NCBI RefSeq assembly: GCF_045679555.1
Contig: NC_092091.1
Coordinates: 78,950,685-79,014,684 of the forward strand
Length of the DNA stretch: 64,000 bases
Source of the DNA: Salvelinus alpinus
Lineage: Eukaryota; Chordata; Actinopteri; Salmoniformes; Salmonidae
Direction: 5' to 3'
The notes beneath the pieces were generated by a model. It was not told the origin of the DNA. It saw only the letters and a list, made by a program, of their open reading frames with translations, and searched no databases. Shown here piece by piece: positions 293 to 52,166 of this stretch; positions within the stretch are counted from its first letter, which is position 1, and each line of letters begins with the position of its first letter. The translations under genes were made by a program, and so were the position numbers.

Positions 293-593
293 CTGTCTTC
301 CAGCTCGTTTTATCTCATCATGGTCTGTATCATGTCCTTTGTGTTCTGTTACTACACACTGACTGCAGATCAGCTTCTGGTCTGTCCTGCAGAACACCTC
401 CAGAGCTCTGTGGTGTTCCTGACAGAGTCTCTCCTCCAGGTCTCCAGTCACCTCCACCAGGGTGTGTCTCTGAAGTTTAGGTACTGTGTAGTGCTTCTTA
501 ACGTGGGTCTCACAGTAGTACAGGTTGCAGGTCAGACAGGACTTCACAGCTTTGACATCACAGACATCACAGACCATCTCTCCTGGCCCGATG
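293..593 (-). CDS. B-box zinc-finger exon, gene copy 1 (partial gene)
   Basis: An internal exon with an AG acceptor just above 593 and a GT donor just below 293. It encodes about 100 residues with two B-box-like zinc modules: CDVC...C..C...H followed by C..H...C..C...C..C..H..H. B-boxes in TRIM-type proteins are small protein-interaction domains. It is clearly related to the exons at 21097-21394 and 51872-52166 and keeps all the Cys/His positions visible in the set. The rest of the gene would continue off the left edge on the minus strand. Whether this copy is functional cannot be judged here. Confidence 0.78.
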
Positions 594-13897: not shown

Positions 13898-14675
13898 ATG
13901 ATGGCGCCCACATCAGCAGCAGAAAGACAAAGGCAGTGTCGAGCACGTCAAAATGCTGATCCAGAAAAAAGGGAACAAGACCTTGAGAGATGGAAAAGAA
14001 ATGTTGAGGCAGGGAAAAAAGAAAAAGATCAGTGATTTAAGTGAGAGAGACCAGCATCAGAAGCATAAACAGTGGAGAACAGCTTACAAAAGAAGCAAGG
14101 AGAGGAAAGGAGGACTGAGGAACTTGACAACTCCTCCACAAAGTCCAGATGTTGAACGTGCGATGGAGATGATGCCAAGCCCGATAAAAGCGGTGCCCTC
14201 CAGCATGAGAATACACCAGGTCATCACCCTTGCTCCTGGTGAGCTGATGTCTCGTGATGTCAGTTGCTTTTGTTCCTCAAAGAAGGACCTACACTGTACA
14301 TGCTTTAACACACAGCACTTCAGTTTCAGGCAGAAGGTCCTGGCTGCTCCAGAACAGCCAGTTATTTTTGAAAATCCACAACCTGTGGGTGAAATCCAGT
14401 GGGGAAATGCAGGTGTTCTTGGGCAGTGGTGTGTAGTGGAATATGATGATGACCTTTATCCAGGCTTCATCCTCGGCAAGGATGAAATGAGTGTTCAAGT
14501 GAAATGTATGCATCGTGTAGGACCAAACAGATTTTTCTGGCCTTCTCCAGACGATATCCACTGGTATCAGTTTGATGAAGTCCTTGAGATGATTCCACCC
14601 CCACAGCTTGTGACATCCTGCCACGTAGAGGTTGAGAGAGATGTGTGGGCCAGACTCTCAGGAAGAAAACCATGA
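13898..14675 (+). pseudogene. Transposon-associated ORF of unknown family, one frameshift
   Basis: ATG at 13898-13903 follows an acceptor-like CTAG. It starts a basic N-terminus (AAERQRQCRARQNADPEKR) typical of short ORFs on fish transposons. Near 14015-14030, in an A-rich run, the frame shifts by one base into the long 240-codon frame that ends at 14675. That part has a Lys/Arg-rich segment, a cysteine cluster (CFCSSKKDLHCTC) and a C-terminal beta-type region (WCVVEYDDDLYPG ... FWPSPDDIHWYQF) that could be a Tudor-like barrel. No catalytic triad is visible. The frameshift could be a sequencing error in the A-run. Confidence 0.6.
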
Positions 14676-16480: not shown

Positions 16481-16611
16481 GTCACAGAGATTAAATTAGA
16501 GAATTTATTTTCTCTACACCTTTCTAATCTCTTTCACCTCTCCCTTCCCAATGTCCTTTTACTTTCATTAACTATTTGTTCATACTTATTGTAATTGATA
16601 TATTGATATAC

Positions 16612-18390
16612 AGCTGCGGTTATCCCCCTCTTCAAAGGGGGGGACACTCTTGACCCAAACAGCTACAGACCTATATCTATCCTACCCTGCCTTTCTAAGG
16701 TCTTCGAAAGCCAAGTCAACAAACAGATTACCGACCATTTCGAATCCCACCGTACCTTCTCCGCTATGCAATCTGGTTTCAGAGCTGGTCATGGGTGCAC
16801 CTCAGCCACGCTCAAGGTCATAAACGATATCTTAACCGCCATCGACAAGAAACAATACTGTGCAGCCGTATTCATTGACCTGGCCAAGGCTTTTGACTCT
16901 GTCAATCACCACATCCTCATCGGCAGACTCGACAGCCTTGGTTTCTCTAATGATTGCCTCGCCTGGTTCACCAACTACTTCTCTGATCGAGTTCAGTGTG
17001 TCAAATCGGAGGGTCTGTTGTCCAGACCTCTGGCAGTCTCTATGGGGGTGCCACAGGGTTCAATTCTTGGACCGACTCTCTTCTCTGTATACATCAATGA
17101 TGTCGCTCTTGCTGCTGGTGAGTCTCTGATCCACCTCTACGCAGACGACACTATTCTGTATACTTCTGGCCCTTCTTTTGACACTGTGTTAACAACCCTC
17201 CAGGCGAGCTTCAATGCCATACAACTCTCCTTCCGTGGCCTCCAATTGCTCTTAAATACAAGTAAAACTAAATGCATGCTCTTCAACCGATCGCTGCCTG
17301 TCCAACATCACTACTCTGGACGGCTCTGACTTAGAATATGTGGACAACTACAAATACCTAGGTGTCTGGTTAGACTGTAAACTCTCCTTCCAGACTCACA
17401 TCAAACATCTCCAATCCAAAGTTAAATCTAGAATTGGCTTCCTATTCCGCAACAAAGCATCCTTCACTCATGCTGCCAAACATACCCTTGTAAAACTGAC
17501 CATCCTACCAATCCTCGACTTCGGTGATGTCATTTACAAAATAGCCTCCAAAACCCTACTCAATAAATTGGATGCAGTCTATCACAGTGCCATCCGTTTT
17601 GTCACCAAAGCCCCATATACTACCCACCACTGCGACCTGTACACTCTCGTTGGCTGGCCCTCGCTTCATACTCGTCGCCAAACCCACTGGCTCCAGGTCA
17701 TCTACAAAACCCTGCTAGGTAAAGTCCCCCCTTATCTCAGCTCGCTGGTCACCATAGCAGCACGCGTTCCAGCAGGTATATCTCTCTGGTCACCCCCAAA
17801 ACCAATTCTTCCTTTGGCCGCCTCTCCTTCCAGTTCTCTGCTGCCAATGACTGGAACGAACTACAAAAATCTCTGAAACTGGAAACACTTATCTCCCTCA
17901 CTAGCTTTAAGCACCAGCTGTCAGAGCAGCTCATAGATTACTGCACCTGTACATAGCCCATCTATAATTCAGCCCAAACAACTACCTCTTTACCTACTGT
18001 ATTTATTTATTTATTTTGCTCCTTTGCACCCCATTATTTCTATCTCTACTTTGCACTTTCTTCCACTGCAAACCAACCATTCCAGTGTTTTTTTACCTGC
18101 TATATTGTATTTACTTCGCCACCATGGCCTTTTTTATATTTTTATATATATATATATTTTGTTTGCCTTCACCTCCCTTATCTCACCTCACTTGCTCACA
18201 TTGTATATAGACTTATTTTTCACTGTATTATTGACTGTATGTTTGTTTTACTCCATGTGTAACTATGTGTTGTTGTATGTGTCGAACTGCTTTGCTTTAT
18301 CTTGGCCAGGTCGCAATTGTAAATGAGAACGTGTTCTCAATTTGCCTACCTGGTTAAATAAAGGTGAAATAAAAAATAAAAAATAAAAGA
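16612..18390 (+). mobile_element. LINE, 5'-truncated (L2/CR1-like, HpaI-partner type tail)
   Basis: Begins abruptly inside the reverse transcriptase, at the sequence matching 37452 of the second copy. It ends with CTACCTGGTTAAATAAAGG and an A-rich tail, the tail shared with HpaI SINEs. 5' truncation is the normal result of target-primed integration. Clearly the same family as 36108-39590. The 3' untranslated region (about 17945-18350) is A/T-rich. Confidence 0.93.
16640..17945 (+). pseudogene. LINE reverse transcriptase, broken
   Basis: The first frame (to 17329) has RT motifs in order: AFDSVNHHILI, MGVPQGSILGPTLFSVYIND and the catalytic YADD (LYADDTILYT). A short deletion near 17300, relative to the second copy, shifts the frame; the C-terminal part (17340-17876) then carries YKYLGVWLD and the thumb region. 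Another shift near 17780 scrambles the last residues. The catalytic box is intact but the protein is split. Confidence 0.9.
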
Positions 18391-18879: not shown

Positions 18880-19670
18880 CACAGAGAAATCATCATCATA
18901 TTAAAGTGATGGTTGTACTTGACATTCAGTACTTTAAGAAATGTCACTCGTCTGCAATTACTATTCAAGTGTTGAGGTTGGTGTATAGTTCATATAATGT
19001 GTAAACAATTACAATGTGTCCACATACAGTCGTTAGACAAACTGTAAATCAACCAACCAACCAACCAGTCAAAACAATGACAGATGGTAATGTTAGATTC
19101 TCAGCGTTCCCAGCATCCCCTTGTTTTACTACTTCCCTCTCTCAGCCTCTTGAAACATCTCATTGGTGTAGTGGCTTGTTCTACAGTATTAAACAGGAAC
19201 AGGCAAGGCAGAGACACTAAGCAAGGTCAGAACATTGACTGATTTCCAGTATTTATACATGTTGCACACAAAGAAATCACATCAAAGTGATGGTTGTACA
19301 TGAAGACTTGACAATACACTGAACAAATAAGGTATTTAGTAATCTAAGAATCATAATTTGTAATCAATTAATGTTTCTGTGTCATGGCTGGTTTACACTT
19401 CACTCTAGAAACGTCTGTAAAGCATTAGAATGTGTCCACAGACAATCCAACCAACCAGCAACTAACCAACCTACCAGTCAACCACCCAACCAGTCAAAAC
19501 AATGACAGATGGTAATGTTACAGACTCTCATTGTACACAGCATTGACCTTGTTTTACTACTTCCCTCTCTCAGCCTCTTGTAACATCTCATTTGTACAGT
19601 GGCTTGTTCTACAGCATTAAACAGGAACAGGCTGGGCAGAGACACTAAGCAACTACTTCTCTTTCTCTCA
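18880..19670 (-). repeat. Imperfect tandem duplication of the GTPase 3' end
   Basis: Two units about 370-425 bp apart share TGTTGCACACA-AGAAATCA, GTGTCCACA, CCAGTCAAAACAATGACAG, the coding-like CTCAGCCTCTTG-AACATCTCATT segment and AACAGGAACAGGC. The unit nearer the gene overlaps the C-terminal codons of the exon at 19478-20268; the distal copy (18880-19250) is untranslated. A third related C-terminal stretch lies at 19660-19700 within the exon. Confidence 0.55.
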
Positions 19671-20268
19671 GCCTCCTGGAACATCTCATTGGTGTAGTAT
19701 CTTTCTCCATTCCTCCTGACCATCTTGTTAATCTTCTCAAGCAGTTCAGTGACCTGGGAGGGATTCGTATCTTTGTTGTTAAAGACATGATATCCCCCTT
19801 TGCATTGGGAAAGTAAACTTTTCAGATCTGGATTTTCAAGCAGGAAGTCTTCAATTGTTACGTCATCATCAAGAAGGTCTCCATGTGTGAAGAGAACCAT
19901 GGTGTAATTGGATGCTTCATCACCAAAGAATCTCTGAATCATCTCCACAGTTCTCTGTTCCTCTTCAGTGAATCTTCCCAGCTTGATCACAACCAGGAAC
20001 ACATGGGGACCAGGAGCAGAGAAAGAGATGCATTTAGCAATCTTTTTCAGTGACTCCTCATTGGACAATGTAGTATCAAACAAACCTGGGATGTCGATAA
20101 CAACTACACTTTGCTCATCCACCTTCTCCTTTCTCTTGTTACAGTCTTTTGTCAGACAAACAGAGGAAAACTTTGATGGGAAATCTTTCCTCCTCCCCAG
20201 GATGGTGTTTCCTGATGCACTCTTCCCAGCTCCAGTCCTCCCCACCAGAACAATCCGGACCTCGTGTT
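19478..20268 (-). CDS. AIG1/GIMAP-type GTPase exon, gene copy 2 (terminal exon)
   Basis: An acceptor (CTCTAACAG) ends at 20269. The exon opens with HEVRIVLVGRTGAGKS, whose GRTGAGKS is the P-loop. It continues with the switch and G3 motif VVIDIPGLFDT and the AIG1-typical SAPGPHVFLVVIKLGRF and FTHGDLL. A C-terminal region follows with the GIMAP phrase RYYTNEMFQEAER. After that the usual charged coiled-coil tail is replaced by about 55 residues from a local duplication. GIMAP proteins bind GTP and many act on internal membranes of immune cells. The stop is at 19478-19480. The upstream exon in phase is the linker at 20917-20959. Confidence 0.9.
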
Positions 20269-20741
20269 CTGTTAGAGTAGAAGGACAATGTTGTTTCCTT
20301 TAACATGAGTATAACCTTGATGTTCTTCCTGTTAGCACATTGACAAACTGCATGTTTCACTAAAATAATTGTGAATGGATGAATGAACGACATCACCAAA
20401 GTTAGAACTCGAGCAGATTTTATTCCTCAGAGCTCTATTGTAGTTTATCTTAGTAATGTCCCATTATTTCTTTCTTCCATTTCATAGAGGGAAACTATTA
20501 AATGGAAACATCCCCCTAATTTCAGTAGAGGTTCCCCTGCTTGTGCCAGTATACTAACCAATACAAAAAGCTGCTTTTTCAGTTTCACACTGCTTCTTGG
20601 CTGCAACTAACATTTATGGTCAGTAGAATATAACCTTTTTCCAAATTAAACCTGACTTTATGAATCAGTGGAATTATTTAAGAAACAAGGAGGCCTACGC
20701 TTTCAATACTTGACACCAGTCATAGTAGGGTACTTCCTTAC
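20269..20741 (-). other. Intron of gene copy 2
   Basis: Contains, at about 20676-20712, the single-copy sequence (ACAAGGAGGCCTACGCTTTC) that is expanded into the 49-bp minisatellite at 49111-49701 in copy 3. Nothing coding. Confidence 0.7.
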
Positions 20742-20887
20742 CTGAGGGTTGCTGACACCAGTTGACTTTGCTTTCTATTTTCCAGCTCAGTGCAGACAGT
20801 GACAGAGTACTGAGTACCACATTGCAGGTCAGAGAGAGTGATGCTGGGTGAAGATGTGGTAGTGATGTGTGGTTATGTCCCTGGACT
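20742..20887 (-). pseudogene. Half fibronectin III exon, gene copy 2
   Basis: Encodes the C-terminal half of an FN3 module (ITLSDLQCGTQYSVTVCTEL), close to the exon at 50235-50504. The donor CAG|GTAAGG is intact, but the N-terminal half and the acceptor are missing. Its donor is in a different phase from the GTPase exon, while the linker exon joins the GTPase exon in frame. Inferred to be a dead exon that is skipped. Confidence 0.75.
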
Positions 20888-20916
20888 GTTTATTCTGTGT
20901 TTCCACATATACCTAC

Positions 20917-20959
20917 CATCATCTGAGGTCAGCGTTGTGTGTTGGTCTCCATCAAAACT
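20917..20959 (-). CDS. Linker exon, gene copy 2
   Basis: A 43-bp exon encoding SFDGDQHTTLTSDDG, between acceptor CCTAAG and donor GATG|GTAGGT. It starts in phase 0 after the B-box exon and ends in phase 1, which fits both FN3 exons and the GTPase exon. The counterpart in copy 3 is at 51619-51687. Confidence 0.6.
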
Positions 20960-21096
20960 CTTAGGCTGTGAAAACCAAAGAAGAGTCAATCCTTTCTGTG
21001 ATTTTCTGTATTTTGCTTTTGACACATAAACCCCTCTATATCGAGAAAATACTGTACATCGTTCAATGAAGTGAATGAAAACAAACCAGGAACTAC

Positions 21097-21394
21097 CTGT
21101 CTTCCTGCTTTCTTTATCCCATGGAGGGTGGTATCATGTCCTTTGTGGTTTGTCTCTGCACACTGACTGCAGATCAGCATCTGGTCTGTCCTGCAGAACA
21201 CCTCCAGAGAACTGTAGTCATGTTGGCAGAGTCTCTCCTCCAGGTCTCCAGTCACATCCACCAGTGTGTGTCTCTTTAGTTTAGGTATTGTATAGTGTTG
21301 TCTGATGTGGGCCTCACAGTAGGACACACTGCAGGTCAGACAGAACTTCACAGCTTGGACCTCAGAGCAGATATCAAAGGATACCTCTCCTGGC
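21097..21394 (-). CDS. Two-B-box exon, gene copy 2
   Basis: Acceptor CACCAG and donor GACAG|GTAGTT bound 298 bp encoding about 99 residues. The first module reads FDICSEVQAVKFCLTCSVSYC...H, the second CQHDYSSLEVFC..C.QCAETNHKGHDT. Copies 1 and 3 have CD(V/I)C at the start; here the first Cys is Phe (VSFDIC), so the first zinc module has lost one ligand, while the second is complete. The exon joins the preceding exon through a split Arg codon (CG|G). Confidence 0.9.
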
Positions 21395-21704
21395 CTGGTG
21401 GGAATTGGATAATAACATTTATCAAATACATTGATCAAAAGAACCTGATCCATTCAGTTTAACACAAAGGCCTGATAATAAACTCAGCAAAAAATGAAAC
21501 ATCCTGTCACTGTCAACTGCGTTTATTTTCTACAAACTTAACATCTGTAAATATTTGTATTAACATAAGATTCAACAACAGACAAACTGAACAAGTTCCA
21601 CAGACATGTGACTAACAGAAATGGAATAATGTGTCCATGAACAAAGGGGGGGGTCAAAATCAAAAGTAACAGTCAGTATCTGGTGTGGCCACCAGCTACA
21701 TTAA

Positions 21705-23131
21705 CTTCTTATGGCTGCAGGGGCAGTATTGAGTAGCATGGATGAAAGGCGCCCAGAGTAAACGGCCTGCTCCTCAGTCCCAGTTACTAATATATGCATA
21801 TTATTATTAGTATTGGATAGAAAACACTCTAAAGTTTCTAAAACTGTTTGAATTATGTCTGTGAGATTAACATAACTCATATGGCAGGCAAAAACCTGAG
21901 AAGTTCCACTTCCTGTTTGGATTTTTTCTGGGGGTGCCATATTTTCAACCAAGCTCTCATTGAATATACAGAGAGATATGGATGGGTTTTCACTTCCTAC
22001 GGCTTCCACTAGATGTCAACAGTCAATAGAACTAAGTCTGATGACTCTAATGTGAAGGACGGTCGAAGGAGACAGAAATTAGTAATCACTGCCATGAGGT
22101 GACCATGCATTCAACACGCGCGTTCACGTGAGAGGCAGCTCCGTTCCATCTCTCAATTGAAGAAAATTTAATTCTCCGGTTGGAACGTTATTCAAGATGT
22201 ATGTTAACAACATTCTAAAGATTAATTCAGTACATCATTTAACATGTTTCTACTGACTGTAACGGAACGTTTGGACATTTCGTCACGTTATAGTGGTCGC
22301 GCTTTGAGACTTTGGTTAGGGTATTTGGTGAACAATTCAAAAGTAGCTAATTTGACATAAATAACGGACATTAACGAACAAATCAAGCATTTATTGTGGA
22401 CCTGGGATTCCTAGGACTGCATTCTGATGAATTCATCAAAGGTAAGGAAACATTTATCATGTATTTTCTGGTTTCTGTTGAGTCCAACATGGCGGCTAAT
22501 TTGGCTATTCATCTGAGCTCCGTCTCAGATTATTGCATGGTTTATGTTTCCGTAAAGTTTTGAAATCTGACACAGCGGTTGCATTAAGGAGAGGTATATC
22601 TATAATTCCATGTGTATAACTTTTATTATCATCTATATTTATGATGAGTATTTCTGTTGAAACGATGTGGCTATGCAAAGTCACTTGATGTTTTTGCAAC
22701 TAGTGAATCTAACGCCTCAATGTAAACTCAGATTTTTTTATATAAATATGAACTTAAACAAAACATGCATGTATTGTGTAACATGAAGTCCTATGAATGT
22801 CATCTGATGAAAATAATCGAAGGTTAGTAATTAATTTTATCTCTATTCTGGTTTTTGTGAAAGCTATCTTTAGCTGGAAGAAATGGCTGTGGTTATTGTG
22901 GTTTTGTGGTGACCTAACATAATTGTTTGTAGTGTTTTTCGCTGAAAAGCCTATTTGAAATCGGACACTTTGGTGGGATTACCAACAAGATTACCTTTAT
23001 AATGATATAAGACACATGAATGTCTGACGAATTTTAATTATGAGATTTCTGTTTTTTGAATTTGGAGCCCTGCACTTCGACTGGCTGTTGTCATATCAAT
23101 CCCGTTAACGGGACTGCAGCCATAAGAAGTT
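21705..23131. mobile_element. Non-autonomous TTAA-site DNA transposon nested in Tc1
   Basis: TTAA flanks both sides (21701-21704 and 23132-23135). The ends are inverted: CTTCTTATGGCTGCAG on the left and CTGCAGCCATAAGAAG on the right. A 4-bp TTAA target is the mark of piggyBac-like elements. No transposase ORF, so it is non-autonomous. Related sequences occur at 11395-11925 and 24514-27595. Confidence 0.75.
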
Positions 23132-23135
23132 TTAA

Positions 23136-23580
23136 GTACTGCAGTACATCTCCTCCTCATGGACTGCACCAGAATTGCCTGTTTTTGCTGTGAGATGTTA
23201 CCCCACTCTTCCACCAAGGCACCTGCAAGTTCCCAGACATTTCTGTGGGGAATGGCCCTAGCCCTCACCCTCCGATCTAACAGGTCCCAGATGTGCTCAA
23301 TGGGATTGAGATCCGGGCTCTTCGTTGGCCATGGCAGAACACTGCCATTCCTGTCTTGCAGGAAATCAAACACACAACGAGCAGTATGGCTGGTGGAATT
23401 GTCATGCTGGAGGGTCATTTCAGGATGAGCCTGCAGGAAGGGTACCACACGAGGAAGGAGGATGTCTTCCCTGTAACGCACAGCGTTGAGATTGCCTGTA
23501 ATGACAACAAGCTCAGTCCGATGATGGTGTGACACACCGCCCCAGAGCATGACGGACCCTCCACCTCCAAATCGATCCCA
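23136..23580 (-). pseudogene. Tc1 transposase C-terminal half
   Basis: Encodes the catalytic second Asp region (LQHDNSTSHTAR) and the Glu region ([20 protein letters not shown]), ending in a normal Tc1-like C-terminus (RRRCTAVLKT). The DNA-binding domain and first catalytic Asp are missing. It is a different Tc1 family from the element at 2974-4611. Confidence 0.87.
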
Positions 23581-23831
23581 CTCCAGAGTACAGGCCCCTT
23601 ACAATGAAGATCTGTGAAGTTATTTGGATTTTTACAAATTATCTTTGAAAGACAGTGTCCTGAAAAAGGGACGTTTCTTTTTTTGCTGAGCTTATAACAC
23701 ATGATAACCTACCTATAACTCTTTTATCATGATGTGTATTTTTGTTTTGCATTAAGTCACAGCTCTTATTTCATGAGGTTAGCATTATTATGACAGTGCG
23801 CTATTTACAGCTGGGCTCAAACCAATCTCAC

Positions 23832-23936
23832 CGTAGAGAGACCCCTCCTTTGAAATGAAGAGGGATATCCATGGATCGGTCACTCTTCATTGATAGAGTA
23901 TCAGAGGAAATAGACTCTGCTATCTCTAATTGGCAC
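23832..23936 (-). CDS. Second Ser-Met-Lys-Ser exon, gene copy 2
   Basis: 105 bp (35 codons) with acceptor and donor (TACG|GTGAGA). The protein has ISSDTLSMKSDRSMDIPLHF. It starts by completing a split codon and ends in CG, which with the first G of the B-box exon gives Arg. This matches the N-terminal repeats of fish NLR/TRIM-like proteins as I remember them. Confidence 0.78.
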
Positions 23937-24117
23937 CTAGTAGTACAAGACAGTCAGGCAAAACACACTAAAAACAACAAAAAATGAATAAAACGAATCA
24001 TATTCCTCAATAATTATCTGAATCACAGTAACGTGAAATCTTTTTCTAGCCACCTACATTAATTAACATAATCATTAGGCACTTATTGACTTTTCCAGGT
24101 AGAACATAGATTCTCAC

Positions 24118-24231
24118 CGTTCATTTTGCTGTAAGGTCCCCTCCTTCAAACTAATAGGGATATCCATTGAGTTGTTACTCTTCATTGAAAAACAACCAGA
24201 GGAAATAGACTCCGCTCTCCCAGGATGGACA
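24118..24231 (-). CDS. First Ser-Met-Lys-Ser exon, gene copy 2
   Basis: 114 bp (38 codons) with acceptor TTGCAG and donor AACG|GTGAGA. The protein includes SSGCFSMKSNNSMDIPISLK. Its length is a multiple of three with the same phase on both sides, so this exon type can be duplicated or skipped without breaking the frame. It joins the start exon in frame. Confidence 0.8.
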
Positions 24232-24513
24232 CTGCAAGTAATACATGACAGTCAGACAGTTGTAGTAAATACTAAAATCAGAGCAGAACAGCCACACTCA
24301 CCTGGGTCAACATCTGTGAAAAGATTATTTATTTTTCCTAGTGATGAGAATGTGAGACATTTGTTATTTCAATTTAATGCAAAAAATACATAAAATCTCC
24401 AGATGATGTTGATGCAGGTGAGTGCAGCATGCGGTGCTGTGAAACACAAAAAGACATGTAGAATTACTACTGCTCCTTGAAGACTGCACCTGTAGAACTA
24501 CCACTGGCCTTAA

Positions 24514-26057
24514 ACTTCTTAGGGATAGACCCCTTGTTTTCCATTTTCACCTAAATGACATACCCAAATCTAACTGCTCAGGCCCTGAAGGATATGCATA
24601 TTTTCTTGGTACCATTTGAAAGGAAACACTTTGAAGTTTGTGGAATTGTGAAGTGAATGTAGGAGAATATAACACAATAGATCTGATAGAAGAAAATACA
24701 AAGAAAAAAAAACGTTTTTTTTCTACCACCATCGTTGAAATGCAAGAGAAAGGTCATAGTTATAGCCATCACTGCTAGTAATTCCGATAGTGTCCACAAG
24801 GTGGCAGCAGTGTATGTGTAAAGTTTCAGATGGATAACTTGAAAAATGAGTTCTCAACAATACTTTTAGTGTCAAGTCCGCAGGTACATTTTGGCAAATC
24901 GTGAATGAGACATTCACATTCACATTCCATTTTTCTGCAAGAAAATCGTCAAATCTGTATACTTGGACTTTGATTTCCAAGTATTAGTAGCCATATTATG
25001 TTCAACATTTGCAAAACAACCAGTTTTCTTAACTTCATAACTCCAAATATTCTTATATGTTGTGTCCAAAAGGAAAAGGCATGCTGTCGCAAAAGGTTAG
25101 CGTGCATTATGCGACCGAGACAGCGTTTCCGGATACTCCCGTAAAGCCCAGCTCATTGCCTATCTAGCTGGCTTTGTTTGACCACGATTTGACAAAGATA
25201 CAGTCCTTCAAGTGATGGCTGCTCTGAAGGCGTCGCTCTCTGACCAAATATGGTGTTCTATAGGATATACTACACCCCTAATGAAATAGTGAAGTCTTGT
25301 TACCTTCTAGGATCTCTGAGGAATACATATGTAACAGTATAACTTTACGTCTGTCCCCTCGCCCCGACCCGGGCGCGAGACAGGGACCCTCTGCACACAT
25401 CAACAACAGTCACCAACGAAGCATCGCTACCCATCGCTCCACAAATCGGTTCCCTTGCAGAGCAAAGGGAACCACTACTTCAAGGTCTCAAAGCAAGTGA
25501 CGTCATCGATTGAAAGGCTATTAGCGTGCACCACCGCTAACTAGCTAGCCATTTCACATCCGTTACACATACGAACGTGATTTGACTCGTTCAAACAACG
25601 TTTAGGGTGAGAGTTTCACAGATTGCTTTGTTTGCAAATTGAACGAGTTGAAATATAAAATCGATTGCACGTGCTATATGAACCTTTTTGGGATCTGAAA
25701 AATGATTGTATCTAACAAAACGACACGTCATCTCTGGGACCCTTTGGATGATACATTCTGAAATGTTGGTTTGATTTAAGTACACATTTCACCTTCAGAG
25801 GTGAATTTATCAAACCTTTCACATTGAAAAAAGTGTTTTGTTGTTAGGGGCTCTTCTCAAACAATAGTATGACATTTTTTCGCAGTAATAGCTACTATAA
25901 ATTGGACAGTGCAGTTATATTAACAAGAATTTAAGCTTTCAGCCGATATAAGACACTTCTATGTACCGACATTTGTTGTTACTCTAAAATCTGTGATCTT
26001 GATATAACGCGCTGCATGATTTACAACTGTCCCGTTGACGGAACACCGATCCTTAAG
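24514..26057. mobile_element. TTAA-type DNA transposon or left part of a larger one
   Basis: Preceded by TTAA (24510-24513) and starting ACTTCTTAGGGATAG; ends near CCGATCC before TTAA at 26053-26056. Contains the LTR-like insert at 25330-25567. No transposase seen. It abuts the next element, so both may be one larger element with a nested copy. Confidence 0.48.
25330..25567. mobile_element. Short LTR-like element
   Basis: 238 bp with TGTAAC...GTTACA ends and CATA repeated on both sides (25326-25329 and 25568-25571). Contains the stretch CATCGCTACCCATCGCTCCA that recurs, slightly changed, at 32311-32365. Could be a small solo LTR. Confidence 0.48.
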
Positions 26058-26061
26058 TTAA

Positions 26062-27595
26062 CTTCTTAGTGATCCCTTCGCGCGCCAATCCCACAAAACC
26101 CAGTGAAATAGCAGCGTGCCAAATTCAAAAACAGAAATACTCATAATAATAATAATTAATAAATCATACAAGTGTTATACACCGGTTTAAAGATGAACTT
26201 CTTGTAATCCAGCCACGGTGTCAGATTTCAAAAAGGCTTTAGGGCGAAAGCAAACCATGCTATTATCTGAGGACAGCACCCCATCAAACATACACATGAG
26301 GGGGCCTCCCGGGTGGCGCAGTGGTCTAAGGCACTGCATCGCAGTGCTAGCTGTGCCACCAGAGTCTCTGGGTTCGCGCCCAGGCTCTGTCGCAGCCGGC
26401 CGCGACCGGGAGGTCCGTGGGGCGACGCACAATTGGCTTAGCGTCGTCCGGGTTAGGGAGGGTTTGGCCGGTAGGGATATCCTTGTCTCATCGCGCTCCA
26501 GCGACTCCTGTGGCGGGCCGGGCGCAGTGCGCGCTAACCGAGGGGGGCGGGTGCACGGTGTTTCCTCCGACACATTGGTGAGGCTGGCTTCCGGGTTGGA
26601 GGCGCGCTGTGTTAAGAAGCAGTGCGGCTAGGTTGGGTTGTGCTTCGGAGGACGCATGGCTCGACCTTCGTCTCTCCCGAGCCCGTACGGGAGTTGTAGC
26701 GATGAGACAAGATAGTAATTACTAGCGATTGGATACCACGAAAATTGGGGAGAAAAGGGGATAAAATTTATTAAAAATAAAAAATAAAAATAACATACAC
26801 ATGAAAATCATAATTCAACCCGCCAGGCACAACACTAAAGTCAGAAATAACATATAATGCATGCCTTACCTTTGAAGATCTTCTTCTGTTGGCACTCCAA
26901 TATGTCCAATAAACATTACAAATGGTCCTTTTGTTTGATTAATTCTGTCATTACATCCCCAAAATGTCAATTTGGCGCGTTTGATTCTGAAAATACACCG
27001 GTTCAAACTCGCGCAACATGACTACAAAGTATCTAATAAGTTACCTGTCAACTTGATCCAGACATTTCAAACAACTTTCCTAATACAACTTTAGGTCTTT
27101 TTTTTCGTAAATAATCTATAAAATTTAAGATGGGATAAACTGTGTTCAATAGCGGATAAAAACAACGTGGAGCGAGCTTTCAGGTCACACGCCTTTAACA
27201 AACAGTACACTTCAATCGACCCTCGTTCTGAACTGCCATACTTCTTAATTTCTCAAACGGAAAAACATCAACCGATTTCTAAACTGTTGACATCCAGTGG
27301 AAGCGATAGGAACTGCAAGCAAGTGCCTTAGAAATCTAGATCCCCATAGAAATCACATTGAAAAGAGTACCTCAAATTTTTTACCTGGAAGGTTTGTCCT
27401 CGGGGTTTCGCCTGTCAAATAAGTTCTGCTATACTCAGACATCATTCAAACATTATTCGAAACTTCAGAGTGTTTTCTTTACAAATCTACTAATAATATG
27501 CATATCCTAGCTTCTGGGCCTGTGTAGCAGGCAGTTTACTTTGGGCACACTTTTCATCGGGACGTGAAAATAGTGCCCCCGAGCCTGAAGAAGTT
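26062..27595. mobile_element. TTAA-type DNA transposon carrying a SINE
   Basis: TTAA lies at 26058-26061 and 27596-27599. The ends are CTTCTTAGTGATCCC on the left and GAGCCTGAAGAAGTT on the right, a partial inverted match. The right part matches, inverted, the fragment at 11395-11925. The SINE at 26300-26792 is nested within it. Confidence 0.52.
26300..26792 (+). mobile_element. Large tRNA-derived SINE with perfect target duplication
   Basis: The head has RNA polymerase III box A-like (TGGCGCAGTGGTCTAAGGC) and box B (GGTTCGCGCCC) sequences, as in a tRNA-Leu-like promoter. An A-rich AATAAAAAATAAAAATA tail ends it. A 12-bp duplication ACATACACATGA flanks it exactly (26288-26299 and 26793-26804). 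It resembles the SlmI type, but the name is from memory. Confidence 0.93.
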
Positions 27596-27654
27596 TTAAG
27601 GACTGCACCTGTAGAGGTTAGTAGTCAATTAACGGTTACACAAACTATCTGCAG

Positions 27655-28440
27655 TGTCCCTACGCACACTCAATAAACTATATCTAGCGTACACACACAC
27701 ACTACATTGACACTCCCACACACATATTCTACATAAGCCCACACATCCACAGTTTTACACTCATCATTGGCTGCTGCTACTTTATTTTAGTCTTATTATT
27801 ATAATAATAATTATTATATATCCTGTAGCCTAGTCACTTTACCCTGCCTTCATTTACATATCTACCTCATACCTCGTACCGCTGCACATACTGGTACTCC
27901 CTGTATATAGCCGCACATTGATCTGGCACTGGTACTCCCTGTATATAGCTCCACATTGATCTGGTACTGGTACTCCCTGTATATAGCTCCACGCTGATCT
28001 GGTACTGGTACTCCCTGTATATAGCCGCACATTGATCTGGCACTGGTACTCCCTGTATATTGCTCCACGCTGATCTGGTACTGGTACTCCCTGTATATTG
28101 CTGCACACTGATCTGGTACTGGTACTCCCTGTATATTGCTCCACACTGATCTGGTATTGGTACTCCCTGTATATTGCTCCACACTGATCTGGTACTGGTA
28201 CTCCCTGTATATTGCTCCACACTGATCTGGTACTGGTACTCCCTGTATATAGCTCCACATTGATCTGGTACTGGTACTTCCTGTATATCGCTCCATTCTT
28301 GTATATTTGATTCCTTGTGTTACTATTTCATTATTATTTTTAAACTCTGCATCCTTGGGAAGGGCTCGTAAGCAAGCATTTCACAGTGAAGTCTAAACCA
28401 GTTGTATTAGGCGGTTATGACAAATTACATTTGAACTACC
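27655..28440 (+). mobile_element. LINE 3' untranslated fragment
   Basis: Ends with GCTCGTAAGCAAGCATTTCA and a T/A-rich tail similar to the 3' end of the LINE at 29240-32092 (TTGTAAGTAAGCATTTCA). It contains the 38-bp minisatellite that such LINE tails often carry. No coding part. Confidence 0.65.
27888..28300 (+). repeat. 38-bp minisatellite, about 11 units
   Basis: Unit TACTGGTACTCCCTGTATAT plus AGCTCCACATTGATCTGG, with variants GCCGCAC, GCTCCACGC and ATTGCTGCAC. Because 38 is not a multiple of three and the unit lacks minus-strand stops, all three minus frames stay open; this is not a gene. Confidence 0.96.
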
Positions 28441-28535
28441 ACTGGCCCTTGATTTTCCCTCACAGTCATTTACACCAAATCTATTGGCTAGAATTAAAGC
28501 AATTAAAACATCCCATCATGCTTAGGTTCATTATA

Positions 28536-28752
28536 GGGGCGGCAGGTAGCCTAGCGGTTAAGAGTGTTGGCCCTTTAACCGAAAGGTCGTTGGTTTGCAT
28601 CACCGAGCCGGCAAGGTTGGAAAAATCTGCCGTTCTGTCCTTGAGCAAGGCAGTTAACCCCCACCGATGACATAATGTTGATTAAGGCAGCCCCCCGTAC
28701 CTCTGATTCAGAGGGTTAAATGTGGAAGACACATTTCAGTTGAATGCATTCA
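28536..28752 (+). mobile_element. HpaI-like tRNA-derived SINE
   Basis: Starts GGGGCGGCAGGTAGCCTAGC, the remembered head of the salmonid HpaI SINE family, with a box B-like segment (TCGTTGGTTTGCATCACC) and the CTTGAGCAAGGCAGTTAACC core. The 3' part has the TCTGATTCAGAGGG...GAAGACACATTTCAGT variant tail. Confidence 0.85.
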
Positions 28753-28970
28753 GTTATGAAACTGACAAGGTTTCCCCTAGAATAAAATGTTCTGTTAACT
28801 ATGTAATTTACTATGCAGTAACTCAGTATCCTTACTAGAAATCATATGAACATATTAGTATATATCTGAGAGGTGTGTTGTATTTTTGGTCAAAATCCTC
28901 TTCATCCTCTGTATTACAAAATTATAGCATAGGATATAAAAGTGTTGAACAAGCACACACCCCCCTCTAC

Positions 28971-29074
28971 CTCATATCAGGGTCCATGGTCTCATCAAGA
29001 TCCTCAAATGGTGACCCATCCTTCTGTCTTTCTTTAGGGATGGCTCCACCCTCAGCCCCCTGATGATAACACAT
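28971..29074 (-). CDS. Start exon, gene copy 2
   Basis: The exon spans 28971-29130 (acceptor TTTACAG at 29131, donor GAG|GTAGAG). The first 56 bp are untranslated; ATG at 29074 begins MCYHQGAEGGAIPKERQKDG and continues to an AG that combines with T of the exon at 24231. The style matches N-termini of fish NLR/TRIM-like proteins. The untranslated part and first codons are the sequence expanded 30-fold in copy 3. Because the exon starts at an acceptor, an upstream non-coding exon and promoter should exist but were not found. Confidence 0.7.
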
Positions 29075-29239
29075 AACTCTGAGAGGAGGTCTCACAATCC
29101 TGAAGAGGATTGGTCTAGTCCTGTATCAATCTGTAAATAAGAAGAGTAAATACCAATATTTAAACAAAAGCAGTCGGCCTACTGTCTGCCTGCTGTGCTG
29201 GGGATTTAAAATTGACATTATAATAACATTCTGTAAAAC

Positions 29240-36189: not shown

Positions 36190-37063
36190 TTTTCCGCCAA
36201 GACAGAACTGCCAAAGGGGGTGGAGTTGCAATCTACTGCAGATACATCCTGCAGAGTTCTGTCTTACTATCCAGGTCTGTGCCCAAACAGTTTGAGCTTC
36301 TACTTTTAAAAATCCACCTTTCCAGAAATAAGTCTCTCACTGTTGCCACTTGTTACAGACCCCCCTCAGCCCCCAGCTGCACCCTGGACACCATATGTGA
36401 ATGAATTGCCCCCCATGTATCTTCAGAGTTTGTACTGTTAGGTGACCTAAACTGGGATATGCTTAACACCCTGGCCGTCCTACAATCTAAGATAGATGCA
36501 CTCAATCTCATCAGGTACAACCCCAAATCCGTAACCATGGGCACCCTCATAGATATCAACCTGTCCTCTAAATACACCTCTGCTGTCTTCAACCAGGATC
36601 TCAGCGATCACTGCCTCATTGCCTGCGTCAGTAATGGGTCCGCGGTCAAACGACCACCCCTCATCACAGTCAAACACTCCCTAAAACACTTCAGCGAGCA
36701 GGCCTTTCTCATCGACCTGGCCCAGGTATCCTGGAAAGATATTGACCTCATCTCGTCAGTAGAGGATGCCTGGTTATTCTTTAAAAGTGCTTTCCTCACC
36801 ATCTTAAATAAGCATGCCCCATTCAAAAAATGTAGAACCAGCAACAGATATAGCCCTTGGTTCACTCCAGACCTGACTGCCCTTGACCAGCACAAAATCG
36901 TCCTGTGGCGTTCTGCATTAGCATCAATAGCCCCCGCGATATGCAACTTCTCAGGGAAGTTAGGAACCAATATACACAGGCAGTTAGGAAAGCAAAGGCT
37001 AGCTTTTTCAAACAGAAATTTGCATCCTGTAGCACAAACTCCAAAAAGTTCTAGGACAGTGTA
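36190..37063 (+). pseudogene. LINE endonuclease and linker, broken
   Basis: GGGVAIYCR and LLTVATCYRPP-like segments, then LLGDLNWDML and, after frame changes, LIDINLSSKYTSAVFNQDLSDHC, the DH.. box of apurinic-type endonucleases. The enzyme would nick target DNA to prime reverse transcription. A stop at about 36403 and a frameshift near 37040 disable it. Confidence 0.85.
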
Positions 37064-37249
37064 AAGTCCATGGAGAATAAGAGCACCTCCTCCCAGCTGC
37101 CCACTGCACTGAGGCTAGGAAACACTGTCACCACCGATAAATCTACGATTGTCGAGAATTTCAATAAGAATTTTTCTACGGCTGGCCTTGCTTTCTACCT
37201 GGCTACCCCTACCCGGTCAACAGCTCTGCACCCCCCATAGCAACTTGCC

Positions 37250-48194: not shown

Positions 48195-48860
48195 ATCTAG
48201 CTAGAAGATGATGCATATGTTTCAGCTTGCTCTGTAGCTTCTCTTTCATGTTTTTCTTCTTCCATTAGACGCTCTCCTTCAAACTTTTCCTTCAGTTCTT
48301 CCATCTCTTTGCGTCTTTTCTCTTTGTTCTCTCTCAGGATCCTGTTTATTTTCTTCAATTTTTCTGTCAGCTTCTTGTAACATCTCATTGGTGTAGTATC
48401 TTCCTCCATTTATTTTCACCATCTTGTTTATCTTCTCAAGCAGCTTAATGACCAGAGGGATTCTGATCTCTGTTGTTGAAGACATGATATCCCCCATTGT
48501 TTTATGAAATGTTGAAGATCTGGAGAATCATCCACATGGTCTTTAATTGACGTTCCCTTGAGACGATCTCCGTGGGTAAATAGGACCATTGTTTAGTTTG
48601 CAGCCCATTCTCCAAAGGTTGTCTGAATGATCTCCAGTATTTCCTTCTGCTCAGGTGTGATTCTACCCAGCTGGATCACAATCAGCAACACATGGGGACG
48701 AGGAGCAGACAAAAAGATGCACTTTGATATCTTTATCATTGCCTCCCCTTTGGTACAGTTGGTGTCAAACACACCTAGAGTCTTGATAACAGTGACCAAT
48801 TGCCCATTCACCTCACCTTTGACCTTTATGCAGTCTGTCATATTTTTCCTTACACAATGT
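48195..48860 (-). pseudogene. AIG1/GIMAP-type GTPase exon, gene copy 3, broken
   Basis: Retains KISKCIFLSAPRPHVLLIVIQLGRIT, FTHGDRLKG, GGRYYTNEMLQEADRK and a normal charged coiled-coil tail (EKRRKEMEELKEKFEGERL). The P-loop and acceptor are gone: intron-like sequence matching 20350-20400 of copy 2 runs straight into codons after the P-loop. The G3 motif is altered (KTLGVFDT), a TAA stands at about 48592, and frameshifts follow near 48480 and 48380. Cannot bind GTP normally. Confidence 0.9.
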
Positions 48861-49110
48861 GAGAGGAAGAATGGACGGCATCACCCATGTTAGTAGGCTT
48901 TCATTTTGTTGAGGGAAAACTATTTTACTGAAACATTTCTCAAGATTAGTCAATTTTGCAGAGGTTCTCTTTCTCTATAAGTCAATACAATAAGCTGCAT
49001 TTTTAGTTTCACACTGCTTCTGGACTCCAACGACTAACATTTGTGGTCTATAGACTATACACTTCAAGCAAATGAATGATAACTTAATGAATCAGTGGAA
49101 ACATTTAAGA

Positions 49111-49701
49111 AACAAGGAGATCTACAGTTTCAATTAATACACTGATTATTTATACTAAACAAGGAGGCCTACACTTTCAGTTAATACTCACTGATCCTTT
49201 AGACTAAACAAGGAGGCCTACACTTTCAGTTAATACTCACTGATTATTTAGACTAAACAAGGAGGCCTACACTTTCAGTTAATACTCACTGATCCTTTAG
49301 ACTAAACAAGGAGGCCTACACTTTCAGTTAATACTCACTGATTCTTTAGACTAAACAAGGAGGCCTACACTTTCAGTTAATACTCACTGAGTCTTTAGAC
49401 TAAACAAGGAGGCCTACACTTTCAGTTAATACTCACTGAGTCTTTAGCCTAAACAAGGAGGCCTACACTTTCAGTTAATACTCACTGATTATTTAGACTA
49501 AACAAGGAGGCCTACACTTTCAGTTAATACTCACTGATTATTTAGACTAAACAAGGAGGCCTACACTCAGTTAATACACATATTATTTAGACTAAACAAG
49601 GAGGCCTACACTTTCAGTTAATACTCACTGATTCTTTAGACTAAACAAGGAGGCCTACACGTTTAGTTAATACTCACTGATTCTTTAGACTAAACAAGGA
49701 G
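49111..49701 (-). repeat. 49-bp minisatellite, about 12 units, in copy-3 intron
   Basis: Unit AAACAAGGAGGCCTACACTT plus TCAGTTAATACTCACTGATT and ATTTAGACT, one unit shortened near 49565. It lies between the last FN3 exon and the GTPase exon. The same place in copy 2 (20676-20712) has one unit. Confidence 0.96.
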
Positions 49702-49861: not shown

Positions 49862-50131
49862 TAGTGCAGATGGTTGTAGAGACTGGTTCACTCTGTTCCC
49901 CATTGTTCAGCACAGTAGAGACACTGATGGTGTACTGAGTACCAGGTCGTAGGTCAGAGAGTGTCTTGTGACAGTCATCAGGGTATGCTGCCTGAGTTTC
50001 TGTTCTTGGGCTGCAGTAAGATATGAGGAACTGCTGAGGGTTTTGATCCGGTTCGAGAGTCGTGGTCCATCTTACAGAGAGGGAGGTAGATTTCAGCTTC
50101 TTTAAAGCCAAGTCTCCTGCGGCTGGGACCT
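49862..50131 (-). CDS. Fibronectin III exon (fourth), gene copy 3
   Basis: 270 bp, acceptor TATTTTAG, donor ACTA|GTAAGG, phase 1 on both sides. Encodes a complete FN3 fold: LKSTSLSVRWTTT (B strand), QFLISYCSP (C), LSDLRPGTQYTISVSTVLN (E-F). The exon is intact although the gene as a whole is broken. Its 3' half is very close to the exon at 50771-51037, suggesting recent conversion or duplication. Confidence 0.87.
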
Positions 50132-50234
50132 CTAAAATAAATTGTAAACAAGAAAAGGAAGGTGTTAGTATATAAAACAGAGTGATCTGACTGGAAATTG
50201 CATGACATTTTTTATTTCTGAATTTGGTCCTTAC

Positions 50235-50504
50235 TTGTGGTCAAGGTGATTGACACTATTTGGCTTTGCACCCCATCTTCCAACCCAGAACAGACAGTGA
50301 CTAAGTATTCAGAGCCACATTGCAGGTCAGAGAGAGTGATGCTGTGTGAAGATGTGGTAGTGATGTGTGGTTCTGTCCCTGGACAATGGTAGGAGATCTG
50401 GTAATGATGTTGGGTTTGGTCCAATCCTGGTGGCTGGTTCCAGCTAACAGCAGCTGATGTGGTGTCCACTGGGTCAACAGTCAGCTGGTCTGGAGCAGGA
50501 AGTA
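50235..50504 (-). CDS. Fibronectin III exon (third), gene copy 3
   Basis: 270 bp, acceptor CCCCTAG, donor CACAA|GTAAGG, phase 1-1. Shows DTTSAAVSWNQPPG, YQISYHCPG and LSDLQCGSEYLVTVCSGLED. This is the module type whose half remains in copy 2 at 20742-20887. Confidence 0.87.
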
Positions 50505-50770
50505 CTAGGGGAAAATACATTATTGTTAGTGTTACAGTTTAACTCCAGAAATATACTACAGGAGGAAAAATAGAATAAGTCCAGGGATAAACATGTCTGT
50601 AATTGCTTTTGATTTGGGAAGAAATAAGTTTAAAAAAAAACAGAAGTCACAACAGAAGTTAACTTGTAATGTTACAAAATGTCTGTTCTGGTTACTGGTA
50701 AAGATATTAGCTGTAACAAGGTGAGGTAGATTAACACAGATGAACAGCAATAAGAAGGTAGATCTCTTAC

Positions 50771-51037
50771 TAGTACAGATGGTTGTAGAGACAGGTTCAC
50801 TCTGTTCCCCATTGTTCAGCACAGTAGAGACACTGATGGTGTACTCGGTCCCAGGTTGCAGGTTTGAGACAGTTTTGTGGCATTCCTTAGTATTTTCTGT
50901 GCAGGGATTTTTTCCTGGGCTGCAGTAGGATATGAGGAAGCGTTGTGGGACTTTCTCCATCCCTTCAGCCTTGGTCCAATGGAGAGTGAAGGAGGTATCT
51001 TTCAAATGGTCTACCTTTAAGTCTCTGGGTGGAACCA
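50771..51037 (-). CDS. Fibronectin III exon (second), gene copy 3
   Basis: 267 bp, acceptor TGCTCCAG, donor ACTA|GTAAGAG, phase 1-1. Shows LKDTSFTLHWTKAEG, FLISYCSPGKN and VSNLQPGTEYTISVSTVLN. Intact frame. Confidence 0.87.
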
Positions 51038-51135
51038 CTGGAGCATAAATCATGATTTATTTTAAGATCCATAACAATATCTCTCTTAAAACACAAAGTA
51101 TGTCAGTACAACATGACTAAAATCAAACTCTTTAC

Positions 51136-51372
51136 CTATGAATACAGATGCAGAGACCCATCTGCTTTGTCTGCCATCTTCTCCCTCTGTGGCCACACTG
51201 AAGTGATACTTTTCACCAGGTTGGAGACTGCTTATTTCAAGCTGATACACATATTTCATTCTTGATGAGCTTGTTTCTCAGTCACATTCCCAGGTAATTC
51301 TAAACTGTTGTGGTCCCTCTACTCCCTCAGGAGAACTCCAGTTCAGAGACAGTCTGATGTCAGCAACAGGAT
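51136..51372 (-). pseudogene. Fibronectin III exon (first), gene copy 3, with a stop
   Basis: 237 bp, acceptor TTTCCAG, donor ATAG|GTAAAG, phase 1-1. Shows LSLNWSSPEGVEGPQQFRIT and EISSLQPGEKYHFSVATEGE. A TGA follows WECD in the middle of the module, so translation would end here. Confidence 0.82.
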
Positions 51373-51618
51373 CTGGAAATCACCAGGACACCAGGAGGGG
51401 GCAGCACTGGTGAAGACATGACAGGAGACAAAAAACACACAATTGGAACTGTATTTACGAACACAAATGCATATCTGAATTTAAGGAGAAACAAATGATA
51501 TCTTAACAAATCATTGTTTTATTGTATGTTCATCATTGTTCACAAGTTATAAGCTATCACTTAAGGTCTCAAAACACTACTTTTGAGTCAGTTAATTATT
51601 GATTGTACATGCACTTAC

Positions 51619-51871: not shown

Positions 51872-52166
51872 CTGGTGTCCAGCTTGTTTCATCCCATCAT
51901 AGATGTATCATGTCCTTTGTGCTTTGATACTGAACACAGACTGCAGATCAGCACCTGGTCTGTCCTGCAGAACACCTCCAGAGCTCTGTGGTGTTCCTGA
52001 CAGTCTCTCCTCCAGGTGTCTATTCACATCCACCACTGTGTGTCTCTTTAGTTTAGCTACTGTATAGTGCTGTCTGATGTGGGTCTCACAGTAGGACACA
52101 CTGCACGTCTGACAGAACTTCACAGCTTGGACCTCAGAGCAGATATCACAGACAACCTCTTCTGGC
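51872..52166 (-). pseudogene. Two-B-box exon, gene copy 3, frameshifted
   Basis: First module intact (VVCDICSEVQAVKFC..CSVSYC...H). A 2-bp deletion relative to copies 1 and 2, in the LEERL region near 52003, shifts the frame before the second module, whose codons survive in another frame. Splice signals are intact. Confidence 0.88.

What the first reader, a model, noticed from the sequence alone, without database searches (positions are those of the whole stretch)
19478..29130. A composite gene joining fish NLR/TRIM-like N-terminus, two B-boxes and a GIMAP GTPase, intact across six exons
Seen directly: exons at 29074-28971, 24231-24118, 23936-23832, 21394-21097, 20959-20917 and 20268-19478 have acceptors and donors, and their lengths (104+114+105+298+43+791) give 1455 nt, exactly 485 codons including stop. 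Every junction keeps the frame. Known: B-boxes belong to TRIM-type proteins, AIG1 GTPases to GIMAPs. Inference: one protein couples a ubiquitin-type scaffold module without a visible RING to an immune GTPase. The combination, in a repeated cluster with NLR-like N-terminal exons, may be a little-described fish immune family.
Basis: partly seen in the sequence, partly recalled or inferred. Interest (0 to 1): 0.78.

Follow-up and report, generated by a model that had tools for sequence, protein, structure and literature searches.

The report
B-box/GIMAP fusion gene in Arctic charr
This is a real fish gene that joins two zinc-finger "B-boxes" to an immune GTPase, a worn-down member of a salmonid gene family that seems to mount one shared front end on several different immune modules.

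Summary
The composite gene is real. A database protein of Salvelinus alpinus (P0001, "GTPase IMAP family member 5-like isoform 2-T5") equals the last 436 of 486 residues exactly once exon 5 starts 6 nt earlier, at 20965. It starts inside exon 2, so the coding start is unsettled.

"Intact" is oversold. The longer form, complete in S. fontinalis P0169, is repeats, double B-box, linker, five FN3 domains, AIG1. The window gene keeps one broken FN3 remnant in intron 5, has lost the usual GIMAP tail (its last ~57 residues are former 3'UTR), and lacks one conserved B-box-1 cysteine. A copy at 47-56 kb is a pseudogene; a third runs off the left edge.

Wider result: the same front end precedes AIG1, URGCP/very-large GTPase and C-type lectin domains. 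In this window the linker exit and the AIG1 and FN3 entries fit phase 1. My paper searches found no description of the AIG1 form. Expression and function are untested.

The parts
28971..29074 (-). Exon 1, coding start MCYHQGAEGGAIPKERQKDGSPFEDLDETMDPDM; exits in phase 2
   Evidence: 83% identical to residues 1-35 of P0169; donor gtag, exit phase 2. Not present in P0001.
24118..24231 (-). Exon 2, first SMKS-type N-terminal repeat, phase 2-2
   Evidence: gcag acceptor and gtga donor; 63% to P0169 residues 37-74. P0001 starts at a Met inside it.
23832..23936 (-). Exon 3, second SMKSD-type repeat, phase 2-2
   Evidence: ctag acceptor and gtga donor; 65% identical to exon 2 over 26 residues.
21097..21394 (-). 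Exon 4, double B-box; first conserved Cys of B-box 1 replaced by Phe
   Evidence: PF22586 and PF00643; ligand count; PDB relatives MID1 tandem B-box, TRIM25, TRIM29.
20917..20965 (-).
   Evidence: Matches P0001, P0010 and P0169.
20744..20887 (-). Decayed FN3 exon remnant in intron 5 (5' half missing, in-frame stop), not in the mRNA model
   Evidence: 85% DNA identity over 134 nt (20886-20753) to the FN3-3 exon of the 47-56 kb copy; protein match with stop.
19478..20268 (-). Exon 6, AIG1 GTPase, entered in phase 1; residues after about 19652 derive from a former 3'UTR
   Evidence: PF04548 211 bits; 78% to P0169 AIG1; breakpoint 19662/19652 against copy 48361/47974, the latter beyond the stop after the copy's GIMAP-type tail.
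51883..52165 (-). Pseudogene copy: B-box exon with frameshift
   Evidence: Two frames needed to cover it.
49862..51406 (-). Pseudogene copy: four FN3 exons; the first has a stop, the other three (51037-50771, 50504-50235, 50131-49862) are open and read as phase 1-1
   Evidence: tblastn; splice and phase check, which kept only exon lengths divisible by three; Pfam fn3 on two of the open ones.
48282..48868 (-). Pseudogene copy: AIG1 with lost P-loop region, stop and frameshifts
293..586 (-). Third copy, cut by the window edge: open B-box exon (68% to exon 4); its repeat exon near 1181-1059 matches in two frames, each with a stop

Best explanation
The gene is a reduced char (Salvelinus) member of a multi-exon salmonid family. 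A shared front end (exon 1, SMKSD repeats, double B-box, short linker) leads into FN3 exons and then an AIG1 GTPase exon related to a salmonid GIMAP subfamily. Shown: in this window the linker exit, the AIG1 entry and three open FN3 exons all fit phase 1, so FN3s can be lost, and AIG1 joined straight to the linker, without breaking the frame. Shown: this copy lost its FN3 exons, its GIMAP tail and one conserved B-box-1 cysteine, yet stays open and is annotated as coding. Inferred mechanism: a cytosolic AIG1 GTPase switch that is brought together by the remaining B-box (B-boxes drive self-assembly in TRIM proteins; recalled). Having no RING it is not itself a ubiquitin ligase. It more likely acts as a scaffolded GIMAP, possibly by co-assembling with the longer B-box relatives and modulating them.
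For: Exact database protein. Paralogue P0010 with the same linker-AIG1 junction, on a contig of the same length. Longer form P0169 with five FN3. FN3 remnant and replaced tail. Phases. AIG1 of P0001, P0010 and P0169 forms one clade (100/98), sister to salmonid GIMAPs P0042, P0048, P0049, P0056 (100/97). GTPase domain closest in sequence to solved GIMAP4 and GIMAP7 and modelled mostly at pLDDT 70-91. P-loop GRTGAGKS present by eye (motif recalled).
Against: No RNA evidence was available. B-box dN/dS is not low: 0.55 against the 586-293 copy and 0.84 against the pseudogene copy (few sites). The two FN3-less genes are the only ones among 93 scorable proteins that lost a B-box-1 position, which also fits decay. 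The window B-box 2 has Asp at a position that is His in 51 of 78 and Asp in 23 of 78. The full-length model is poor (mean pLDDT 55.9; residues 1-173 under 50). The scaffold function is inferred only.
Confidence: 0.68

Rival explanations
1. A decaying copy: transcribed at most by inertia, open by chance for now, with no function of its own.
For: Lost B-box-1 Cys, lost FN3s, lost GIMAP tail with 3'UTR read as protein; sister copy at 47-56 kb is already dead; B-box dN/dS 0.55 and 0.84.
Against: Six exons, all splice sites and the whole 486-residue frame are open; the Cys/His set of B-box 2 is kept apart from one Asp shared with 22 other proteins; the AIG1 P-loop is kept; paralogue P0010 shares the same short junction, so the short form is not unique to a dying copy.
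Confidence: 0.33
2. The short form is only one splice isoform, or an annotation choice, of a locus whose normal product contains FN3 exons.
For: P0001 is called isoform 2-T5, so other isoforms are implied; P0169 (named isoform X2), 94% identical to P0010 in the front end, has five FN3.
Against: In the window, intron 5 holds only one truncated FN3 remnant with a stop, so this locus cannot make the long form. It remains open for P0010, whose DNA I could not see.
Confidence: 0.12
3. Two neighbouring genes (a B-box gene and a GIMAP gene) wrongly merged.
For: Gene-prediction merges are common (recalled); P0203, with seven AIG1 before a C-terminal B-box, looks like one.
Against: Same junction in two S. 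alpinus proteins and the same domain order in S. fontinalis and in the pseudogene copy; phases fit at every join; the AIG1 exon's phase-1 acceptor leads straight into the domain, with no Met in that frame between acceptor and P-loop.
Confidence: 0.05

Closest known systems
GIMAP/IAN GTPases (AIG1 family), salmonid GIMAP8-like and 7-like
   Same: AIG1 domain, P-loop and sister clade in the tree
   Different: B-box front end added; no glycine-rich C-tail as in P0042, P0048, P0049, P0056
TRIM proteins (MID1, TRIM25, TRIM29 B-boxes)
   Same: tandem B-box related in sequence and weakly in fold (MID1 at E 2.0e-3, second of 193 matches)
   Different: no RING and no TRIM coiled coil
S. fontinalis P0169, annotated fibronectin-like isoform X2
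   Same: same front end and AIG1 clade
   Different: five FN3 domains between linker and AIG1; B-box-1 Cys/His set complete
Salmonid B-box-FN3-URGCP / interferon-induced very large GTPase proteins (P0168, P0170 and others)
   Same: same front end; P0168 lies on a contig of the same length as P0001's
   Different: output is the URGCP GTPase, not AIG1
Zebrafish NLR-B30.2 family (PMC4852459)
   Same: short N-terminal repeat exons and reported exon shuffling (passages and section 3.2 read)
   Different: no FISNA, NACHT, LRR or B30.2 here
Sturgeon P0113 (RING, B-box, TRIM coiled coil, two AIG1)
   Same: B-box and AIG1 in one protein
   Different: its AIG1 domains fall elsewhere in the tree, so probably a separate fusion or a merged prediction
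Paramormyrops P0120 (PYRIN, FN3, AIG1, twice)
   Same: FN3 directly before AIG1, in a non-salmonid fish
   Different: PYRIN instead of B-box; its AIG1 domains form their own clade

Membership tests
GIMAP (AIG1) GTPase | AIG1-type G domain | tested here: met
   PF04548 211.3 bits, cutoff 27
GIMAP (AIG1) GTPase | Groups with GIMAPs in a tree | tested here: met
   Sister to one set of salmonid GIMAPs, 100/97; four other salmonid rows lie elsewhere
GIMAP (AIG1) GTPase | Charged/coiled C-terminal tail, often with a hydrophobic end | tested here: not met
   Tail replaced by former 3'UTR. Not all GIMAPs have the hydrophobic end (recalled), so I do not treat it as excluding.
GIMAP (AIG1) GTPase | GTP binding or hydrolysis | not testable with these tools
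   needs a biochemical assay
TRIM | B-box zinc finger(s) | tested here: met
   Two by Pfam; B-box 1 lacks one conserved Cys
TRIM | RING | tested here: not met
   No RING family at E up to 1
TRIM | TRIM coiled coil | tested here: not met
   PF25600 absent, present in P0113
Fish NLR (NLR-C / NLR-B30.2) | FISNA-NACHT | tested here: not met
   absent
Fish NLR (NLR-C / NLR-B30.2) | N-terminal ~30-residue repeat exons homologous to those of NLRs | tested here: inconclusive
   Repeats of similar size on single exons; kinship to NLR repeats recalled, not aligned
Salmonid B-box-FN3 front-end family (proposed here) | exon-1 peptide, SMKSD repeat, double B-box and linker in that order | tested here: met
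   exon 1 absent from P0001
Salmonid B-box-FN3 front-end family (proposed here) | FN3 after the linker | tested here: not met
   Only a broken remnant. Filed as a reduced derivative, not a full member.

The most novel reading that the evidence does not exclude
Salmonids and some relatives carry an undescribed modular immune system in which one front end (SMKSD repeats, double B-box, phase-1 linker, FN3 spacers) is mounted on interchangeable output modules (GIMAP GTPase, very large GTPase, C-type lectin, and more distantly stonustoxin-like and NLR modules), and the B-box parts let different outputs assemble together. The window gene would then be a short, FN3-less form that co-assembles with and tunes the longer members.
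Probability: 0.3. Interest if true: 0.72.

Novelty: new variant of a known kind. Interest (0 to 1): 0.5.

Why it matters
Exon shuffling of N-terminal repeats, and with the B30.2 domain of fintrims, is reported for zebrafish NLRs (PMC4852459). Here the same kind of shuffling appears to reach two GTPase families and lectins, in this window through a phase-1 exit after one linker exon. If confirmed across genomes, it gives a concrete rule for how fish build new immune proteins. It would also explain why databases name members of one family "fibronectin-like", "protogenin B", "GTPase IMAP 5-like" or "up-regulator of cell proliferation-like". Two GIMAP4-like genes were the most induced genes in the gills of parasite-resistant steelhead (PMC7901748, passages), so salmonid GIMAP variants are of practical interest; nothing I saw there concerns this gene.

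Tried and rejected
Rejected: chance exon assembly (exact database protein). Rejected as the main reading: merged neighbouring genes (see rivals). Rejected: one common origin of the fish B-box/AIG1 proteins seen; sturgeon P0113 and Colossoma P0203 AIG1 domains lie far from the char clade, and P0203 looks like a merged prediction.

Led nowhere: Rfam, 0 matches at gathering thresholds. Own-genome search did not complete. The full-length structure model left residues 1-173 under pLDDT 50, so it says nothing on domain arrangement. The B-box-only model (mean pLDDT 70.9) gives only weak fold matches, none at E of 0.001 or less. dN/dS rests on 98 and 55 codons. The papers listed for S. alpinus genome annotation (listing only) gave no sign whether P0001 has RNA support.

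Limits of the counts: the B-box-1 count aligned 97 proteins (P0001, P0010, P0113, P0121-P0214). Four alignments did not cover all eight positions and are left out; P0190 was flagged as broken by the script but reads intact around an insertion and is counted as intact. That leaves 91 intact and 2 broken of 93. All three protein searches see only proteins within a length range of the query; one search lists 120 of 3724 hits, searches list all of theirs (46 and 50). The tree holds only proteins from these lists.
Full report
What was checked. Pfam finds AIG1 (211 bits) and two B-box families, with no RING, TRIM coiled coil, NACHT or FN3 in the spliced protein at E up to 1. A protein search returned P0001, S. 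alpinus "GTPase IMAP family member 5-like isoform 2-T5", 100% identical over 90% of the query, and P0010, 78% identical over 87%, on a contig of the same length. P0001 implies that exon 5 starts at 20965, which adds Pro-Lys. With that change the model is 1461 nt and P0001 is an exact suffix starting at residue 51. The window is therefore most likely Arctic charr; this is inferred from the exact match, since the own-genome search did not complete.

Coding start. P0001 begins at a Met in exon 2. Exon 1 is supported by homology: P0169 matches it at 83%, and the motif M[SC]Y[HQ]QG occurs in 28 of the 214 returned proteins, in 27 at residue 1. Which start is used here is open.

What the gene came from. 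P0169 of S. fontinalis (899 aa) has the same front end, then five FN3 domains, then AIG1. The window's own copy at 47-56 kb has the same order: B-box, linker, four FN3, AIG1. It is dead, with a frameshift in the B-box, a stop in FN3-1, and a broken AIG1 lacking the P-loop region. In the window gene, intron 5 holds a 5'-truncated FN3 remnant with a stop, 85% identical over 134 nt to the copy's third FN3 exon. So this gene lost its FN3 exons. Its 3' end also shows a loss: it aligns to the copy's coding sequence up to 19662 and resumes at 19652 with copy position 47974. The copy still shows the salmonid GIMAP tail (matches to P0042 down to 48113, then a stop in the tail's last readable frame near 48065), so 47974 is 3'UTR there. 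The tail seen in salmonid GIMAPs is gone from the window gene, and its last ~57 residues read former UTR. P0010 and P0169 also lack the glycine-rich end.

B-box condition. Of 97 B-box proteins aligned, 93 could be scored at all eight conserved Cys/His positions of B-box 1. 91 keep all eight, and the two that do not are P0001 (first Cys to Phe) and P0010 (third Cys to Gly) (P0190 corrected by eye). These are different changes, in exactly the two FN3-less char AIG1 genes, while P0169, P0113 and P0203 keep theirs. That fits relaxed constraint on B-box 1 in the short form. B-box 2 of the window gene keeps its Cys and His positions except that one position is Asp, as in 23 of 78 proteins (His in 51 of 78). 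Reading these positions as zinc ligands rests on the known B-box fold (recalled).

Exon phases. Exit phases are 2, 2, 2, 0, 1. The repeat exons are phase 2-2. The three open FN3 exons of the copy are best read as 267-270 nt, phase 1-1; the scan kept only lengths divisible by three and also gave shorter variants. The linker leaves in phase 1 and the AIG1 exon is entered in phase 1. These modules can therefore be added or dropped after the linker without shifting the frame. I saw no DNA outside the window, so the rule is not shown for the lectin or URGCP forms. Among 17 returned proteins with a recognisable linker, only P0001 and P0010 run from linker straight into AIG1; the other 15 continue into what read by eye as FN3 starts.

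The wider family. A search with the front end of P0010 gave 46 proteins; a search with the front end of P0125, in a longer length range, gave 50. By the listed Pfam domains, AIG1 occurs in 2 of 46 and 2 of 50; URGCP domains in 1 of 46 and 17 of 50; C-type lectin in 2 of 46 and 2 of 50; stonustoxin-like domains (PF18078/PF21109) in 20 of the 50, 18 of these with a RING; PF01419 (jacalin, name recalled) in 1 of 50; FISNA in 1 of 50. P0168 (B-box, FN3, URGCP) lies on a contig of the same length as P0001 and P0010. Leaving the stonustoxin type aside, the B-box-FN3 members are from Salmonidae, Esox, Dallia and Umbra, with one smelt (P0190) and one anchovy (P0205) protein. Front ends cross the output types: P0010's is 94% identical to P0169's (AIG1) and 82% to P0176's (very large GTPase), and the window B-box exon is 91% to P0168 (URGCP) against 88% to P0169 (AIG1). 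That is a hint of swapping or gene conversion, not a test.

Where the GTPase came from. In a tree of 132 AIG1 domains from 122 proteins, P0001, P0010 and P0169 form one clade (100/98), sister to salmonid GIMAPs P0042, P0048, P0049 and P0056 (100/97). Four other salmonid rows (P0035, P0038, P0040, P0047), the sturgeon (P0113) and Colossoma (P0203) B-box/AIG1 proteins, and the PYRIN-FN3-AIG1 protein P0120 lie elsewhere. As far as this sample goes, the char fusion arose in the salmonid line from a local GIMAP subfamily. I saw no member of that clade outside Salvelinus, but the searches are length-limited and one search shows 120 of 3724 hits, so absence is not shown.

How it probably works. The AIG1 domain is closest in sequence to solved GIMAP4 and GIMAP7 and is modelled mostly at pLDDT 70-91, in a model whose overall mean is 55.9. 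The B-box exon is related to the MID1 tandem B-box, TRIM25 and TRIM29. I infer a cytosolic GTPase switch gathered by its B-box. Without a RING it is not itself a ligase. It may co-assemble with longer relatives. None of this is shown. The main rival is decay (0.33).

Selection. Nei-Gojobori dN/dS of the B-box exon is 0.55 against the 586-293 copy (98 codons) and 0.84 against the pseudogene (55 codons). Both are too small to decide, and neither argues for strong constraint.

Literature. Searches for GIMAP/AIG1 with B-box, fish, NLR, fibronectin, teleost, salmon or fusion and for very large GTPase with fibronectin, fish or B-box listed no paper on these fusions, judged by titles and abstract starts; some searches listed only 20 of 56, 20 of 41 and 10 of 21 papers. 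The two papers listed were opened by term: one mentions AIG-GTPases and B-boxes among the partner domains of an oyster protein expansion, the other lists GIMAP and TRIM separately (PMC8195603 and PMC9334734, passages). AIG1 fused to CARD and HINT is reported in lancelets, and to death, kinase, ARM and hint domains in a snail (PMC12373286 and PMC7053062, passages; "b-box" has 0 occurrences in both; FN3 not searched there). AIG1 taking new partners is therefore known. Howe et al. (PMC4852459, passages and section 3.2) describe exon shuffling of N-terminal repeats among zebrafish NLRs.

Noticed in passing
window 55415-57692: A 76-bp unit repeated 30 times at 97% match that contains the start-codon region of exon 1 (ATGAGTTATCATCAG) beside the pseudogene copy: a minisatellite made from a gene start.
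   Followed up: partly
window 49110-49702: A 49-bp unit repeated 12 times between the last FN3 and the AIG1 exon of the pseudogene copy.
   Followed up: no
window 27889-28295: A 38-bp tandem array of about 11 copies in intron 1 of the gene.
   Followed up: no
window 51641-51692: The linker exon of the pseudogene copy is duplicated as a perfect 26-bp repeat.
   Followed up: no
window 19000-19652: The 3' end of the gene is partly duplicated in tandem: 19652-19416 matches 19224-19000 at 82%.
   Followed up: partly
window 13902-14675 and 61000-61473, + strand: Open frames of 257 and 157 aa without any Pfam match.
   Followed up: no
window 43294-43935, - strand: DUF4371 fragment; reverse-transcriptase-like ORFs at 16607-17876 and 36405-38824 and Tc1-like ORFs at 3233-4017 and 23038-23598 by eye from recalled motifs.
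   Followed up: no
P0190 (Osmerus eperlanus): A B-box-FN3 protein that also lists PF01419 (jacalin lectin, name recalled): a further possible output module.
   Followed up: no
P0203 (Colossoma macropomum): Seven AIG1 domains followed by an SMKSD repeat and B-box at the C-terminus, the reverse order; probably a merged prediction.
   Followed up: partly
Atlantic salmon paper PMC7560756 (passages): Reports a 9.2-kb duplication of coding exons 5-10 inside a 14-exon GIMAP8 gene, heterozygous in 6% of farmed and in no wild fish; whether that gene belongs to this family was not checked.
   Followed up: no
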